Source of the DNA: Curvibacter lanceolatus ATCC 14669
GTDB taxonomy: Bacteria; Pseudomonadota; Gammaproteobacteria; Burkholderiales; Burkholderiaceae_C
Assembly (NCBI RefSeq): GCF_000381265.1
Contig: NZ_KB906268.1
Span: 1 to 64,000, forward strand
Length of the DNA: 64,000 bases
Reading direction: 5' to 3'
Shown: positions 48,201 through 54,744 of the stretch, piece after piece
Layout: each line of letters begins with the position of its first letter
How positions within the stretch are numbered: the stretch's first letter is position 1
The notes under the pieces: generated by a model
The model's input: the letters and a program-made list of their open reading frames with translations, nothing else
Databases searched by the model: none
Told to the model about the DNA's origin: nothing
Translations under genes and position numbers: made by a program

Positions 48201-49250
48201 ATGACACGTCCTATCGAATTCAAAACCTCAGTCGCAACCCAACTTTGCGGTCTGAACCTGACCCCAAAGAAGTTGCTGGAACTGGTGGGACGTGACAAGC
48301 CAGCTGGACAACATCACATGCGCTACACCCCCAGTGACATGCGCGCAGTGTGGTTCCGCTCCCAGGACTTGCCTGTTCCTGACCGTGATCAAATTTCGAT
48401 CACAGACACGGCCAAATTGCCGCCGGTCATCGTGACCCGCATGACAAAGGGTGGCGTTGGCAAAACCAGCGTTGCAGTCAATGTCGCAGCAAGTCTGGCG
48501 ATGATGGGCTATCGCATCCTGGTGATCGACGCAGATCCGCAGGCCTCGGCTAGTAATTTGCTCGGGATCGAGACATCCGCTTACGACAGCAATCTCACCC
48601 ACATTGGTGACTTCCTGAAGCTGAGTACAAACACCCCGGACGAGAACCTTCCTTCTGCTATCAAGCAGATCTATGAAGGCGGCTTCCTTGACCTAATTCC
48701 TGCCGACATCACGCTGGCTGAAGCCGATGCATCGTTGGTAACTGCGATGAGTTCGCATTCCCGTGCGGAGCTATTTTTCTCTCGCAATTCCTCGTTTCTT
48801 GGTCAACGCTACGACGCCATCGTTGTTGATACAGCACCTGGCACAACACCCATTGGCTTGGCATTCACATACGCAGCTCGCCAGGCCGGAAAGGTGCTGA
48901 CCGTAGTCGAACCAGAAGGTAGCTGCTTGCGTGCGCTGGACTCGTTGGCGAGCAACCTTGAAGAGATCAAAGCGCTGACCCATGCCATTGTTGGCATGGA
49001 GGTTGTCATCAACAAATATCACCCGTCTCTTAAGCACGTCCGAGACTCAATGAGTTTCCTGTACGCCAAGTATGGGTCGATGCTCAACGACACGATCATC
49101 CCGCAATACTCTGGTTTTGCCAGGCAGATCAACCCAACCAACAAACTCCCGGCTCCTCTTGTCGAGCTGGAACCCTCCTCTTCTGGATCGAGCGCAATGT
49201 TCGAAGTTTCGAAGAGCCTCATCACCAGCTTTGGCATTCGGATGGCCTAA
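48201..49250 (+). CDS. parA: ParA partition ATPase (class Ia)
   Basis: This 349-aa ATPase has an N-terminal extension of about 75 residues with an HTH-like segment, as in class Ia ParA proteins that repress their own operon. The deviant Walker A is MTKGGVGKTS (about residues 81-90), with Walker A' VIDADPQA and Walker B DAIVVDTAPG. ParA moves ParB-parS complexes on the nucleoid. parB follows eight bases downstream. Confidence 0.94.
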   Translation: MTRPIEFKTSVATQLCGLNLTPKKLLELVGRDKPAGQHHMRYTPSDMRAVWFRSQDLPVPDRDQISITDTAKLPPVIVTRMTKGGVGKTSVAVNVAASLAMMGYRILVIDADPQASASNLLGIETSAYDSNLTHIGDFLKLSTNTPDENLPSAIKQIYEGGFLDLIPADITLAEADASLVTAMSSHSRAELFFSRNSSFLGQRYDAIVVDTAPGTTPIGLAFTYAARQAGKVLTVVEPEGSCLRALDSLASNLEEIKALTHAIVGMEVVINKYHPSLKHVRDSMSFLYAKYGSMLNDTIIPQYSGFARQINPTNKLPAPLVELEPSSSGSSAMFEVSKSLITSFGIRMA

Positions 49251-49258
49251 GGATCACT

Positions 49259-50347
49259 ATGGCTGCTCGTCAACCTATCAAACTTTCTGGACTTATCTCC
49301 AAGGGTGCCATTGCGCCACTTGCGACCCCTCCTACTTCGGAGTCGGCTGACGCACCTCAACCGAATCCGATCAAGTCCGATCCGGCATTGCCCGCACAAC
49401 GTGCGCACGCGCCGTTTCTCAGCCCAGTCAATGCAACTGAGAATCATTCAAACAATGATGCGAATCTTCGCAGCGTTGGCCCGCACAAGTTCTATGAACA
49501 GCTGATTGATGTGTCGCTCATTGATGCGAATCCATTCGCACCGCGAGAGATCTACACATCGGAAATGTTGCTCACAAGAGCCGAGGAACTTCGGACTCAG
49601 GGGCAACATGATCCCATCCATGTCATCCCGCACCCTGTTGACGCTGGTCGATTCATGATCGCGGACGGCTGGACGCGCGTGCAGTCCTGCCAACTTCACC
49701 AAGCGCTTCCGCGCCTTCGTGCACAGGTCTACCTGGACATGACACCGCTTCAGGCTGGGTGGTTCGGATACGAGTCCAACGAGGGTCGTGAGGCGGCCAG
49801 TGACTATGACAGAGGGATGTTTTACGCCAAGCTCCTTGCCGAGGGTGAGTCTCAGACAAGCGTGGCCGAGCGCGTGGGCATTTCGAAGACAGCACTGACC
49901 ATGTTCCTGGCCTTCCACAAGCTTCCCGATGAAGTTCATTCAATCATCACGGAGAATCCGAGGAAGTTTTCATACAAGGCCACCTACGAGATCAGTCGCA
50001 TCTACGAAAAGGCTGGCGTTCGAAAAGCACTGGCCGTAGCGATCAAATTCGCAGCAGAGGATCTGCCTCTGAAGTGGCTGCTCAACCAGACTCAGGCTGT
50101 GCTTCATCCTACAAAGAGCACGCAGCCGCCTACTCAAAAGTACCTCCGGTATGCCAACGGCGTTTACAAACAACGTGGCGACACATTTGAGGTTTCAATG
50201 CAAGTGGCCCCCGAAAAGCGTGACCTTTTCGCATCCGAACTTGAAAAGCTTTTGAGCACCGTCGCAATCGACGCGCCACCAGCTGCAGAAATCGCCGACG
50301 ACAAGCAGGGCAAAGAACCCCAGGCCAACGAGGAGAACAACCCGTGA
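49259..50347 (+). CDS. parB: ParB centromere-binding protein
   Basis: This 362-aa protein has the ParB N-domain, with LIDANPFAPR, a box I-like GWTRVQSC, and a box II-like ESNEGREAASDYDRGM region that in the family binds CTP. The HTH is QTSVAERVGISKTALTMFLAFHKLP (about 200-224). The C terminus has a further conserved-looking unit (YANGVYKQRGDTFEVSM). It is the likely binder of the palindrome array that begins about 275 bp downstream of its stop. Confidence 0.92.
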   Translation: MAARQPIKLSGLISKGAIAPLATPPTSESADAPQPNPIKSDPALPAQRAHAPFLSPVNATENHSNNDANLRSVGPHKFYEQLIDVSLIDANPFAPREIYTSEMLLTRAEELRTQGQHDPIHVIPHPVDAGRFMIADGWTRVQSCQLHQALPRLRAQVYLDMTPLQAGWFGYESNEGREAASDYDRGMFYAKLLAEGESQTSVAERVGISKTALTMFLAFHKLPDEVHSIITENPRKFSYKATYEISRIYEKAGVRKALAVAIKFAAEDLPLKWLLNQTQAVLHPTKSTQPPTQKYLRYANGVYKQRGDTFEVSMQVAPEKRDLFASELEKLLSTVAIDAPPAAEIADDKQGKEPQANEENNP

Positions 50348-51651
50348 CCTTCACGTCACGTCAGACTGCAACAGTGCCCCTGATTCGCGAAAGCGACAGG
50401 GGCACTGGCACATTTGAGGCCCACTTTCGCCAACTTTCCGGCCAGCCGCCAATTTTCATCAACGATCTCCACAGCGTGCTTTCTGACGCCAATTCCTTCA
50501 ATCCCACCAAAACTTTCGCCGCCCCTCACATTCCCCACAATCAACCCAATCACGGCGACTTTAATTTTTCTACACCCAAAGGGCAAAACAGCTCGGACGC
50601 CGCACCCCCCGACCTCTGTACTGTTTACACGAGTAAACAGCACCCCGCACACATCGTCTCTGCCCCACTGTTTACACACGTAAACACCCAGCCAACTCTC
50701 CCGAGCCCACCCGGTGTTTACACGAGTAAACACACAGTCACAGCCACCAACCCCGGCAACGTGTTTACACGCGTAAACACCCAACTCGCCATGCACTACC
50801 CGCATAGTGTTTACACGAGTAAACACACCACCAAACCAGCCGCGAGATCAACTGCGCCATCATCGACGCAAGCCAACACCACTCACTCCAAATTGGATGA
50901 TGGTGTTTACTCGTGTAAACACCCAGCCGTAGAACCCAGCACTGGCGCCGTGTTTACACGAGTAAACAGCACCCCACACACACCAGGCAGCACCACCGTT
51001 TACACGCGTAAACACACTGCCTCAGGATTAGCCAATGCGGCGACGCCATGCGCACATCAGTCGCCAACCACGAATCCACCAATCACCGATCGAATGCGCA
51101 ATTCGGGGCTGACCAGATTCGCCAAGGCCACGGCGTTTACACGAGTAAACACATCACACAAACCAATCGTTACTCAGCCGGGTCGCACTAGCACCCGAAT
51201 CACAGGCGCACCATCGCTCAGGGACCCTGAAATCAACGTGAGGGATGCACTGTTTACACGAGTAAACGCGGGCACTCAGAGATTCCTGCGCCTGGGGGTT
51301 TACGCGTGTAAACAAGAAACATGCGAAAACCTGGGCTTAGGTTTATTCACACCCGATCCATCAGGGGTGTTTACACGTGTAAACGCGAGCGCTCATGCAC
51401 TAGTGGCTGATCGTGTTTACACGCGTAAACAAGGGTGGCAGGCAAGTGCGGATGACGCTGCCTCAAAAGAATGCACGGCATTCGCAGCAGTCATTCGCTT
51501 GATGCCAGCGATCCCCGCCCTCCAGAGATCTGCGCCCGGTGCTGCTAGAGAAATGCAATGTCCCGATGCGGGCGAGAGACTCAAGAGATCTGTACATCAG
51601 AACCGTATTGATCAAGCGGCCATGCTGCATGAAAGGTTAGCCATGAGCTAG
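50344..51651 (+). CDS. Open frame carrying the parS-like array; doubtful protein
   Basis: The frame starts at GTG overlapping the parB stop (GTGA) and stays open for 435 codons across 13 palindromes. The palindromes alternately encode FTRVN and VYTSK/VYTRK peptides about 31 codons apart in phase. The N-terminal 90 residues could be real coding sequence. The rest is Thr/Pro/Ser/His-rich and low in complexity. It has no recognised domain. It may be a genuine disordered protein, or only DNA kept open by the spacing of the sites. Confidence 0.4.
   Translation: MTFTSRQTATVPLIRESDRGTGTFEAHFRQLSGQPPIFINDLHSVLSDANSFNPTKTFAAPHIPHNQPNHGDFNFSTPKGQNSSDAAPPDLCTVYTSKQHPAHIVSAPLFTHVNTQPTLPSPPGVYTSKHTVTATNPGNVFTRVNTQLAMHYPHSVYTSKHTTKPAARSTAPSSTQANTTHSKLDDGVYSCKHPAVEPSTGAVFTRVNSTPHTPGSTTVYTRKHTASGLANAATPCAHQSPTTNPPITDRMRNSGLTRFAKATAFTRVNTSHKPIVTQPGRTSTRITGAPSLRDPEINVRDALFTRVNAGTQRFLRLGVYACKQETCENLGLGLFTPDPSGVFTRVNASAHALVADRVYTRKQGWQASADDAASKECTAFAAVIRLMPAIPALQRSAPGAAREMQCPDAGERLKRSVHQNRIDQAAMLHERLAMS
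50623..51430. repeat. Array of 13 parS-like 16-bp palindromes (candidate centromere)
   Basis: The consensus is GTTTAC-ACGA-GTAAAC with variable centre (ACGA, ACGC, ACAC, TCGT, GCGT, ACGT). Sites start at 50623, 50670, 50716, 50763, 50809, 50905, 50952, 50998, 51135, 51252, 51298, 51369 and 51415. Gaps are 47, 46, 47, 46, 96, 47, 46, 137, 117, 46, 71 and 46. The site at 51369 is a perfect palindrome. The 16-bp size and central CG resemble chromosomal parS (TGTTTCACGTGAAACA). The place directly downstream of parAB suggests a multi-site centromere, and iterons for replication are the alternative. No copy was noticed elsewhere in the window. Confidence 0.85.
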
Positions 51652-51668
51652 CAGTAAGAAAACAAAAA

Positions 51669-51696
51669 AGCCCTCAGGTCGCCAAACCTGAGGGCT
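51669..51696. terminator. Hairpin terminator after the parAB-array unit
   Basis: The ten-base stem AGCCCTCAGG / CCTGAGGGCT has an eight-base loop. The A-run lies on the left, so the strongest U-tract is for leftward transcripts. The right side has CTTCC only. It probably separates parAB from the replication gene. Confidence 0.75.
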
Positions 51697-51827
51697 CTTC
51701 CGGATTCTTGAGGAATCCACTCAAAACGACCTAACCGGCGCCAACCGGAAAATCGCAGATCAACGAGCGAATATTAGGTTTTCGAGTGGTTTTCGTCAAG
51801 GCTTTCGTGTCTTTTTCGGAGACTGCG

Positions 51828-52772
51828 ATGAGTACGCTCACGCCTAAATATTTCCCAGCACCCATCACGCGCGCCGTGTTTCGCCTGCATGACTCAGATT
51901 CGTTCAAAGACCTCCCGGACGGATTTATTCGGATCGTCATCAGCATCATCAAGAAGATTGACCTTTCTTCGCCACGCAAGTCGATTTTTGCGAATCGAAC
52001 CACCATTGCGGAAGAATCCGGAAAATCCGTAGAGACAGTCCAAAGAGCCATCAAGTGGCTTGAAGACAAGGGTTTCTTTGAACGCCAGCAAATTGCCAAC
52101 CCTGGCCAGCGTGGCAGTCGTTCGCCCCTTACGCCTACCGACCTTTTCCTTGAGGCGGTGGAGTTGCATCCGGAAGGCCTGCGGTTTTCGCCTGGGCAGC
52201 ATCAAGCGAACAATGCTAGCGCCTCCAGCTCGGCCCGAACATCGAGCAGCCTAGAGGGAATACCGACAGCAGGAACCCCCTCACAAGGCCGTTTCGTCCG
52301 ACATGAAGGCATGACCATCCCAGCCGACCTGGTATGGCTCTGTAGGGGGCATGCATTGCGCCCATCGGCCGTCCTTCAACTCATGGGCCTTGCCTCCAAA
52401 GCCGGCAAGCGCCTGTCTACTGTGATCGAGGCAACAAAGCAGTACCTGTTGGCCCTCCATGGACGAGAGCTGTATGCCTACATCAAAGCTCTTCTGTCCA
52501 AAGATCGGGATTTTGGTCAGGTCTTGAAGGAAAAGTCGGCAGAGCTGGAAAGTTCTCAAACCAGCGAGTTCTTGAGAGAAAAGGCGCAAATTTTGGAAGG
52601 CCGATCTTTTACCAATGCAGATGGCACCACAAGGTACGCCATTGAAGGCGGGCTGCTGGTGGTCCTCAAAGACGGCCGACGCGCTGTGGCCCAACTGACA
52701 GAGAAGTTCCTCGACTCGATCAATTGCGGGCGAGTGCGGGAGCGGTGGATAACTCGTGCGCAGGCCTCCTAA
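51828..52772 (+). CDS. Winged-helix DNA-binding protein, candidate replication initiator
   Basis: The start at the ATG 51828 has GGAG seven bases upstream and gives 314 aa, whereas the open frame from 51786 has no ribosome site. An N-terminal winged-helix/HTH (FANRTTIAEESGKSVETVQRAIKWLEDKGFFERQQ) is followed by a variable linker and a helical C-terminal domain. It lies between parAB and kfrA, next to a DnaA box and repeats, the usual place of a plasmid rep gene. No Rep family could be named from the sequence, so the role is inferred. A transcription factor is the alternative. Confidence 0.65.
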   Translation: MSTLTPKYFPAPITRAVFRLHDSDSFKDLPDGFIRIVISIIKKIDLSSPRKSIFANRTTIAEESGKSVETVQRAIKWLEDKGFFERQQIANPGQRGSRSPLTPTDLFLEAVELHPEGLRFSPGQHQANNASASSSARTSSSLEGIPTAGTPSQGRFVRHEGMTIPADLVWLCRGHALRPSAVLQLMGLASKAGKRLSTVIEATKQYLLALHGRELYAYIKALLSKDRDFGQVLKEKSAELESSQTSEFLREKAQILEGRSFTNADGTTRYAIEGGLLVVLKDGRRAVAQLTEKFLDSINCGRVRERWITRAQAS

Positions 52773-52958: not shown

Positions 52959-53633
52959 ATGTCCAAGCGAGACAGCGTTTTTGCAGCGGCTGATGAAATG
53001 GCCAAACGTGGCGAGAAGCCAACCGTCGAGAAGATCAGAATGGAAACCGGAGGTAGCTACACGACGTTGACGCCATTGCTTCGCGAGTGGAACGAACTCC
53101 AGGCAGCGAAGAAGCTTCAGACAGCACCGCCGCCGGAAGATCTTCACCAGGTCGTCACGAATGTGCTGAACGATTTATGGATCCGGGCCTGCGCCAGTGC
53201 GGACGCACGACTGAATCTAGAGCGGGAGAGCATGACCAAGCAGGCAGAACAGGCCAGAAAAGAATCTGAAGAACTGCAGTCGCTCGCTGATCGCCTCGAA
53301 GAAACGGTGGAGCGCCAGCAAGGCGTTATCAAGGACCAAGAGGCTTCGATGACAGAACTGAAGTCCAGCCTGCTTGCAGCCCAGCAAAAGCTAAGCGAGG
53401 TAGAGGCGGCACTCAGCGCACCGGGGCAAGGCCTTACCGTCTCCTGCTGGCGCCTCAGGTGCCGAGTGGAAAAGGCTGTTGAACCAGATGTTCGACCTCT
53501 CCATGGAGCAGGACTCCCGAACTGCGGAGGTGGAGGCCTTCGTGCGTACCCATGGCTACGCGCCCTTGCGCTTGGTGCTGTCGGGCACGGCCAAGCTCGT
53601 GGTCTACATGGCCCCCAAAGACGAAGAGCGTGA
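52959..53633 (+). CDS. kfrA: KfrA-like DNA-binding protein, frame changed after the coiled coil
   Basis: Residues 1-75 form the KfrA N-terminal DNA-binding domain (VFAAADEMAKRGEKPTVEKIRMETGGSYTTLTPLLREW). Residues about 80-150 are a coiled coil (QAEQARKESEELQSLADRLEETVERQQG). After a run of four G at 53423-53426 the frame turns into an Arg/Gly/Cys-rich tail that does not look like protein. The next frame becomes the coding one (GKALPSPAGASGAEWKRLLNQ) and runs to 54744. Either a single base change splits one protein of about 595 aa, or a rearrangement joined a truncated kfrA to another gene. Confidence 0.75.
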   Translation: MSKRDSVFAAADEMAKRGEKPTVEKIRMETGGSYTTLTPLLREWNELQAAKKLQTAPPPEDLHQVVTNVLNDLWIRACASADARLNLERESMTKQAEQARKESEELQSLADRLEETVERQQGVIKDQEASMTELKSSLLAAQQKLSEVEAALSAPGQGLTVSCWRLRCRVEKAVEPDVRPLHGAGLPNCGGGGLRAYPWLRALALGAVGHGQARGLHGPQRRRA

Positions 53634-54744
53634 TGACCGCCTGCTGGAACACACGTGGGTGCACCGCGTCACGCTGGCGCGCGGCAAAGCCGGGTATGTC
53701 GAAGAATCGCGGCGTTGGGCCACCATGACCGTGAAGTCTGCGGCCGAGACCACGCTGCACGAATGGCCTGGGGCTGCTGAATGGCTGAAGTCGTCCCCAT
53801 TCGATACCTTTGAGCGCAAGTCACAGCTGCTGGGCCGTTTGGACCAGTTCCATGAAGCGATCAAATCCTTCACAGGGCCGATGAGCAAGCAGACGTTCGA
53901 CGTTCTCATGGGGCGCTTCAAGACGGTCATGGACGCCGCCAACAACCCAGGAGCCAGGTTGCGGTTTCCCGTCCTGGCGTTCCCGGTTGGCCTGGTCTTC
54001 CATCCCAGAAGCGGTGAGATGAGCTACCTCTGTGTCGGTACCCGCAGGCCGTATCGATTTCTGGCAGCGCTGGCGCCGGATTTGAAGGGCTCAATGCAGG
54101 TGGTCGAGTCGATGCGCTGGTGGTTTTCGAACGAACGTCAGTTCCAAAAGCGCTGGAATCAGGCCCCGGACGCTCGCAACGACTGGCGCATCCTGCAGTG
54201 CCCGATCGACGCGTTCTCGACCGAGTTCGGAAACTTTGTGAAGCCAGCAAAGCTGGATCATGCGGTGAAGGTGGTGGATCCCCCTGTGAGCGCCTTGCTG
54301 GCTGATTGGTATGAACTGGGGGTGCAGTCACTGGAGGGCTCCGCGAAGATCCTGACATCTCCAGCGCTGCTGGGGGCAGATGGTCGGCTCGATGTTGATC
54401 AGCTGCTCGGGATCCGTCAGATTGAGGGCCTGGACCCCATGGAGACCCTGGTCATTCGAATCCGTGGTGATGGCGCTCCTAGGCTGAATTGGTGCTTTGA
54501 TGTGGCCACGGTGGGCACCCCCATGCCGAGCTTTGGTGGACTCAGTATCCCAGAGGGGTGCTCCATGAGCAGCTCGTACGAAACGTCGGTTCACGCAGCA
54601 GCTGCGCGGGAGTTCCGAGAGGCGCTCACGCTGAAGGAGTTTGGGCCGGGGGCCCGACTCGTGAACGCCAGAGATCTGCCCGACGCGCCGCAAGCCAGTG
54701 AGGGGGTGGAGCGGTGGTTTGTTGTGCATGATCGATCAGAATGA
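53479..54744 (+). CDS. Hypothetical protein joined to the kfrA region
   Basis: The 421-aa frame opens at a TTG without a good ribosome site, and an ATG three codons later is no better. Coding-like sequence continues upstream in the same frame to about 53425, so the annotated start is probably not the true N terminus. The product is soluble, with segments such as VRTHGYAPLRLVLSGTAKLVVYMAP and MSYLCVGTRRPYRFLAALAPDL. No family is recognised. It has higher GC than the genes to its right. Confidence 0.6.
   Translation: MNQMFDLSMEQDSRTAEVEAFVRTHGYAPLRLVLSGTAKLVVYMAPKDEERDDRLLEHTWVHRVTLARGKAGYVEESRRWATMTVKSAAETTLHEWPGAAEWLKSSPFDTFERKSQLLGRLDQFHEAIKSFTGPMSKQTFDVLMGRFKTVMDAANNPGARLRFPVLAFPVGLVFHPRSGEMSYLCVGTRRPYRFLAALAPDLKGSMQVVESMRWWFSNERQFQKRWNQAPDARNDWRILQCPIDAFSTEFGNFVKPAKLDHAVKVVDPPVSALLADWYELGVQSLEGSAKILTSPALLGADGRLDVDQLLGIRQIEGLDPMETLVIRIRGDGAPRLNWCFDVATVGTPMPSFGGLSIPEGCSMSSSYETSVHAAAAREFREALTLKEFGPGARLVNARDLPDAPQASEGVERWFVVHDRSE

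What the first reader, a model, noticed from the sequence alone, without database searches (positions are those of the whole stretch)
50623..51430. Thirteen phased parS-like palindromes downstream of parB
A run of 13 palindromes (GTTTAC-N4-GTAAAC) lies directly after parAB. Most gaps are 46 or 47 bp (47, 46, 47, 46, then 47, 46, later 46 and 46), about 4.4 turns of DNA. This many regularly spaced parS-like sites is more than the one or few sites usual beside a par locus. It may load many ParB clamps on one face or in alternating faces. An alternative is an iteron array for replication control.
Basis: partly seen in the sequence, partly recalled or inferred. Interest (0 to 1): 0.85.

Follow-up and report, generated by a model that had tools for sequence, protein, structure and literature searches.

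The report
Plasmid centromere inside a reading frame
On this bacterial plasmid the likely centromere, thirteen copies of a short palindrome beside the partition gene parB, lies entirely inside a long reading frame that overlaps the end of parB; related plasmids with quite different palindromes keep the same layout, which suggests that the centromere is likely translated so that one transcript can reach the predicted replication gene beyond it.

Summary
The 13 palindromes are real and are the only exact copies in the 6.83-Mb genome. They are very probably the ParB-binding centromere (parS array, sopC-like) of a plasmid parAB locus, not iterons: a same-genus replicon with a 95% identical downstream RepL-like protein, but a different ParA/ParB, carries a different palindrome.

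The unexpected part is that the whole array lies inside a 435-codon ORF overlapping the parB stop codon (GTGA). The 46/47-bp alternation fits the reading frame (never the TAA phase) and shows no 10.5-bp phasing. In 14 of 17 non-redundant arrays of this ParB family (about 1.1 expected by chance) one frame starting at the parB stop is open through every site, although palindromes and spacers differ. All 14 have a RepL-like gene downstream; the two arrays of three or more sites that lack it are closed. Two distant Burkholderiaceae plasmids found through RepL show the same layout, but neither is significant alone.

The encoded sequence drifts almost neutrally (dN/dS 0.86), so I infer that translation itself, not the product, is selected, most likely to carry the par transcript through the centromere to repL. 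ParB binding, translation and read-through are untested.

The parts
48201..49250 (+). parA, ParA-family ATPase, 349 aa
   Evidence: Pfam AAA_31 E 2e-26; relatives
49259..50347 (+). parB, 362 aa, ParB N-terminal and helix-turn-helix regions
   Evidence: NCBIfam TIGR00180 63.9 bits, above its cut-off 58.45; profile matches to Noc, Spo0J, KorB and ParB structures; Pfam SoPB_HTH, HTH_ParB and ParB_N all below cut-off
50330..50335 (+). GAGGAG, Shine-Dalgarno-like, 8 bases before the GTG of the array ORF
   Evidence: sequence; assignment inferred
50344..51651 (+). array ORF, 435 codons, GTG start overlapping the parB stop by 4 bases (GTGA); contains all 13 sites
   Evidence: no Pfam or NCBIfam match
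50373..50406 (+). 10-bp perfect hairpin at the start of the array ORF
   Evidence: sequence; read by eye
50623..50638 (+). palindrome 1
50670..50685 (+). palindrome 2
50716..50731 (+). palindrome 3
50763..50778 (+). palindrome 4 (missing in L013, where it is replaced in frame)
50809..50824 (+). palindrome 5
50905..50920 (+). palindrome 6
50952..50967 (+). palindrome 7
50998..51013 (+). palindrome 8
51135..51150 (+). palindrome 9 (one mismatch in L013)
51252..51267 (+). palindrome 10
51298..51313 (+). palindrome 11
51369..51384 (+). palindrome 12
51415..51430 (+). palindrome 13
51643..51651 (+). conserved minimal ORF ATG-AGC-TAG, in frame with the end of the array ORF
   Evidence: ATG-(Thr/Ser)-stop at or near the ORF end in the 14 open arrays (44 bases after it in L014), not found in L049
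51663..51702 (.). 18-pair hairpin with a run of A on its 5' side: terminator-like on the minus strand; compensatory changes across relatives
51828..52772 (+). RepL-like winged-helix gene, predicted replication protein (function inferred)
   Evidence: Pfam RepL 20.6 bits against cut-off 20.3, E 3.3e-4; homologue annotated RepL in L062

Best explanation
This is a sopC-like centromere array of a plasmid ParABS locus, 13 palindromes likely bound by the neighbouring ParB, that lies wholly inside a 435-codon ORF overlapping the parB stop codon and is predicted to be translated so that the par transcript can run through the centromere to the RepL-like gene downstream. Shown by sequence: the sites, the ORF, the stop-start overlap, the same layout in relatives, and its association with the RepL-like gene. 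Inferred: ParB binds the sites; ribosomes coupled to parB translate the ORF; selection keeps the frame open for the act of translation, not for the product. Most likely mechanism: trailing ribosomes would keep RNA polymerase moving through ParB-covered DNA and hide more than a kilobase of RNA from Rho, so that repL is expressed from the par promoter.
For: Sites. ORF with GTGA overlap, GAGGAG upstream. All 13 sites sit in the two stop-free phases: chance 0.015. One frame open from the parB stop through the last site in 14 of 17 non-redundant arrays, 1.06 expected when spacers are shuffled and phases randomised; combined p 2e-14, assuming independence and with zero counts set to 1 in 4000. No reverse frame is open in the 15 arrays, nor in L077 and L078. 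Starts lie at -7 to +12 of the parB stop. Of the 14 open ORFs, 13 end at the conserved ATG-Thr/Ser-stop element, and L014 44 bases before it. RepL-like gene downstream on the same strand: all 14 open arrays; absent in L010 and L016, which are closed (Fisher p 0.008 for arrays of 3 or more sites). L015 and L016 have 84.5% identical ParBs and differ in both. Window against L013: 188 substitutions and one 3-bp indel in the ORF, frame intact; random substitution outside the sites keeps it open in 3.4%. Four more protein variants, 62-76% identical, are full length; one of them is 96% identical to L013's. Swap: L047 has RepL 94.7% identical but ParA about 24% and ParB about 53% (best local alignments), and GTTTGC instead of GTTTAC. 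Candidates found through RepL: L089 and L091 show the same layout. F-plasmid sopC has 7-9 stops in every frame.
Against: No transcript, ribosome or binding data. The frame shows no coding signature: codon-position changes 71/58/59, dN/dS 0.86, against 0.59 and 0.78 in the shifted frames. Eight of the 14 open arrays are not individually unlikely once site positions are fixed (seven with P 0.16-0.39, L077 0.62). L009 has RepL but a closed 2-site array. L050 lacks RepL within 7.2 kb, yet one frame is open through its 2 sites (P 0.27). With two-site arrays counted, the link to RepL is only p 0.056 (the 0.016 wrongly used L055, whose contig ends 570 bases after parB). L089 and L091 have P 0.34 and 0.23, and one reverse frame is also open in L089. 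A second array in L063, beyond RepL, is open too. A repL promoter of its own was not excluded. The arrays are related by descent, so the p-values are too small.
Confidence: 0.5

Rival explanations
1. The ORF encodes a functional, mostly disordered third partition protein, and the ParB sites merely lie in its gene.
For: The frame is open and its start lies at the parB stop in many relatives; one plasmid record annotates it as a protein (L005); the first 24 and last 6 residues are nearly fixed in six close variants.
Against: dN/dS 0.86 with nearly equal change at all codon positions, while ParB is 0.15 and ParA 0.02. The products of different loci share no evident sequence apart from site-encoded peptides and the conserved end (inspection). 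No Pfam or NCBIfam match. The conserved ends coincide with a hairpin and the ATG-Ser-stop element.
Confidence: 0.2
2. An ordinary non-coding sopC-like centromere; the open frame is a by-product of composition.
For: The array is C-rich and G-poor (C 0.34, G 0.20), which lowers stop frequency, and L047 is so too (0.35, 0.17); with sites fixed, the window's frame alone has P 0.016.
Against: 14 of 17 open against 1.06 expected with dinucleotide content kept; starts cluster at the parB stop; F sopC is closed in all six frames; L005, L059 and L060 have open frames with C and G nearly equal.
Confidence: 0.15
3. An iteron array bound by the RepL-like protein for replication control.
For: The array lies between parB and the RepL-like gene in most of the array loci.
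Against: RepL is 94.7% identical in L047, yet the palindrome differs. L010 has 7 sites beside parB and no RepL within 5.4 kb. The palindromes group with the ParB recognition region, with exceptions.
Confidence: 0.04
4. Translation of the ORF regulates repL through its leader: ribosomes that arrive at the ATG-Ser/Thr-stop element change the fold of the structured RNA before repL.
For: The element and a hairpin with compensatory changes lie between ORF and repL; 13 of 14 open ORFs end at the element.
Against: The leader is also present in L009, whose array is not in an open frame; no known RNA family matches at its gathering score (window and 8 relatives).
Confidence: 0.1

Closest known systems
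F-plasmid sopABC with sopC
   Same: parAB followed at once by a many-copy palindrome array; here 8 of 12 gaps are 46-47 bp, F has 43-bp spacing
   Different: sopC is closed in all six frames (7-9 stops each) and RepE lies upstream of sopA; here the array is in an ORF and a RepL-like gene lies downstream
Bsr partition systems of Burkholderiales secondary replicons (PMC5450999, passages read)
   Same: 16-bp palindromic parS with T-rich 5' end; narrow specificity for the cognate ParB
   Different: the passages read mention no array inside an ORF; whether this ParB belongs to a Bsr family was not tested
parS sites inside coding genes: repABC replicons (PMC9040568, passages read) and SCP2 parT (PMC12260392, passages read)
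   Same: ParB sites within protein-coding sequence
   Different: the passages describe sites inside genes such as cas genes or parT itself; here a whole array fills an ORF whose product is not conserved

Membership tests
ParABS plasmid partition locus | adjacent ParA ATPase and ParB genes | tested here: met
ParABS plasmid partition locus | ParB binds the palindrome specifically | not testable with these tools
   only indirect: sites follow ParB, not RepL
ParABS plasmid partition locus | canonical CTP-binding arginine motif of ParB (GERRxR, recalled) | tested here: inconclusive
   DGWTR at that place in 22 of 22 family members examined; N-x-x-R motif kept
ParABS plasmid partition locus | array needed for plasmid stability | not tested
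   needs an experiment
sopC-like centromere array | many regularly spaced palindromes directly after parB | tested here: met
sopC-like centromere array | non-coding, as in F | tested here: not met
   open frame here; F closed
Iteron array of a replication origin | sites follow the replication protein | tested here: not met
   RepL 94.7% identical, palindrome different
Ordinary protein-coding gene | purifying selection on the product | tested here: not met
   dN/dS 0.86; 71/58/59 changes by codon position in one pair, window and L013

The most novel reading that the evidence does not exclude
A translated centromere that reports on itself: ParB load on the array gates the transcript that must cross it, and ribosomes reading the array ORF decide how much of that transcript reaches repL, so centromere occupancy sets plasmid replication. 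The ORF is selected for being read, not for what it encodes.
Probability: 0.25. Interest if true: 0.9.

Novelty: new variant of a known kind. Interest (0 to 1): 0.75.

Why it matters
Centromeres of plasmids are usually treated as silent binding sites. Here 14 arrays with differing palindromes and spacers keep a frame open through every site, in step with a downstream replication-like gene. If translated, this would be a case of selection for the act of translation, and a direct physical link between segregation and replication control. It also makes the role of spacing testable: codon phase, not helical face.

Tried and rejected
Helical phasing: no 10.5-bp period. Known RNA families in the leader: none at gathering score in eight relatives; in the window six matches, all below the family's gathering score. 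Viral contigs: none of 12 pattern matches encodes a relative. How widespread: ParB matches in 72 of 399 family genomes at E 1e-3, most of them weak; at strict limits 3 of 9 in the genus, 2 of 399 in the order, 1 of 369 in the class (the window's own), 4 of 47, 2 of 5 and 1 of 6 in three other genera; 11 plasmid records. RepL as bait: 7 of 399 family genomes; the one new genome (G038, L084) shows no array, so it says nothing. In plasmids RepL matched 21 records, 13 of them distant (Cupriavidus, Paraburkholderia); I fetched 7 of those 13 (L085-L091), and only L089 and L091 have parB directly upstream (and 95 for the unannotated L087). Purifying selection as proof of a functional protein: rejected.

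Rows left out of the 17-array count: near-identical copies L013, L052, L067, L076; L061 (Delftia record with the same gene coordinates as L060, not analysed); L049 (one site; open to +224); L006 (array interrupted by transposase genes); L050 and L055 (two sites; one frame open in L050, none in L055; L055's contig ends 570 bases after parB, so its RepL status is unknown). No repeated palindrome family seen after parB in L011/L053, L054, L056, L057. Loci L028-L046, more distant ParBs, were only scanned for palindrome families. L008 holds only the ParA half of the plasmid in L059.

Literature: searches (listings and starts of abstracts of the papers shown) showed no report of a ParB-site array filling an ORF coupled to parB; most subscription papers are not covered. 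Of three papers I saw passages only.

Full report
What is there. The 13 exact palindromes GTTTAC-N4-GTAAAC are at the stated place, 50623-51430, and they are all the exact copies in the 6.83-Mb genome. Directly upstream are parA (48201-49250) and parB (49259-50347). Profile matches put ParB with Noc, Spo0J, KorB and chromosomal ParB structures. Downstream are a RepL-like winged-helix gene (51828-52772) and a KfrA-like gene. The contig is 130 kb and the window carries a conjugative TraD gene, so a plasmid is likely. A 95% identical ParB lies in a Curvibacter metagenome genome.

The array is inside an ORF. A 435-codon frame, 50344-51651, begins with GTG overlapping the parB stop as GTGA, 8 bases after GAGGAG, and runs through all 13 sites. 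The five other frames over the same stretch hold 12-23 stops each. A palindrome of this sequence carries a stop in one of the three codon phases. The 13 sites use only the other two, read as VYTSK-like or FTRVN-like peptides; if phases were random, a frame free of site stops would exist with probability 0.015. It does not place sites on one DNA face.

Relatives. ParB relatives were collected by DNA and protein similarity. Directly after parB many of them carry arrays of other palindromes: GTTTGC, GTTTAG, GTTTAT, TATTAA, TTCATA, TCTGTA, TCTATA, TCCTGT, CTTGTA. Of 17 non-redundant arrays, 14 have one frame open from the parB stop through the last site; 1.06 are expected when spacers are dinucleotide-shuffled and phases randomised. 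The three closed ones are L009 (2 sites), L016 (3) and L010 (7). Six long arrays carry most of the weight (window, L047, L051, L060, L062, L078); eight of the 14 are not unlikely alone with site positions fixed. Start codons lie at -7 to +12 of the parB stop; four-base overlaps (start at -3) occur in window, L047, L051, L063, L078 and L015. Where the palindrome has stops in two phases, every gap is a multiple of 3 in the open arrays (L014, L015, L048) but not in the closed ones (L009, L010, L016). L077 and L078 were found after the pattern had been noticed and both fit it.

Link to the RepL-like gene. All 14 open arrays have a RepL-like gene downstream on the same strand, its homology beginning 168-286 bases after the ORF end. 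L010 and L016 have none within 5.4 and 4.4 kb and are closed. Fisher p is 0.008 for arrays of three or more sites. With two-site arrays, where L009 and L050 go against the rule and L055 is uninformative, it is 0.056. L015 and L016 have 84.5% identical ParBs and differ both in RepL and in openness. Looking from the other side, RepL as bait found two Burkholderiaceae plasmids with parAB directly upstream (ParB about 21%, RepL 27-29%), among 7 of 13 distant records fetched. Both have palindrome arrays inside an ORF that starts at the parB stop, and one ends in ATGAGCTAA. Their frames alone have P 0.34 and 0.23, and in L089 one reverse frame is open too.

Selection. Between the window and L013 the ORF has 188 substitutions and one 3-bp indel and stays open; random substitution of the same spectrum outside sites leaves it open in 3.4% of trials. 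Yet dN/dS is 0.86 and changes fall almost evenly on codon positions, while ParB (0.15) and ParA (0.02) are strongly conserved. Four more protein variants in a large collection are full length, two with extra in-frame segments that hold site-like peptides; one of the four is 96% identical to L013's. That collection holds only predicted proteins, so it is biased to open frames. My reading: the sites are conserved, the spacers drift, and stops are removed. This points to the act of translation (inferred).

Sites belong to ParB. Window and L047 share a 94.7% identical RepL, but their ParA (about 24%) and ParB (about 53%, best local alignments) differ, and so do their palindromes. Palindromes group with the ParB recognition region, with exceptions such as TTCATA in both L050/L055 and L060. 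The canonical GERRxR motif (recalled) is DGWTR in all 22 sequences examined, so CTP dependence is open.

Mechanism. The parB transcript would otherwise contain about 1.3 kb of untranslated RNA before the repL leader, on DNA covered by ParB. Translation would protect it from Rho and help polymerase through. This is inference from established coupling of transcription and translation in bacteria. The leader itself holds a conserved ATG-Thr/Ser-stop element and a hairpin with compensatory changes, which may regulate repL.

Known or new. ParB arrays are known from F sopC, which is closed in all six frames. Single or few ParB sites in genes are known from repABC replicons and SCP2 (passages only). 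An array that fills an ORF coupled to parB was not seen in the listings. I file it as a new variant of a known kind.

Noticed in passing
51640-51830: Leader before the RepL-like gene: ATG-Ser/Thr-stop element, hairpin with a CGCCAA-containing loop and A-run on its 5' side, second CCGG hairpin; in 8 aligned loci 11 of 25 predicted pairs show a two-sided change; no Rfam match at gathering score (window, 8 relatives).
   Followed up: partly
50373-50406: 10-bp perfect hairpin right after the parB stop; the encoded N-terminus is nearly identical in six ORF variants.
   Followed up: no
L005:8505-8595 and ends of other relatives' ORFs: Many relatives, but not the window, carry a GAACCCCGC...GCGGGGTTC-type hairpin just before the ATG-Thr/Ser-stop element; it gives the products a similar C-terminal stretch.
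   Followed up: no
L060:5870-7290: Delftia array contains 210-bp (in-frame) repeats carrying two sites each; the 472-codon ORF is not in the record's gene table, which is incomplete.
   Followed up: partly
L063:7690-8030: A second array of 4-5 sites beyond the RepL-like gene, similar to the first and also inside an open frame (158 codons).
   Followed up: partly
52959-54744: The KfrA-like ORF looks truncated or frame-shifted near 53480, where another long frame (53479-54744) takes over.
   Followed up: no
L013 against window 50735-50810: A short block of very high divergence inside the ORF where one site is lost and replaced in frame; the stretches on either side are much more alike.
   Followed up: partly
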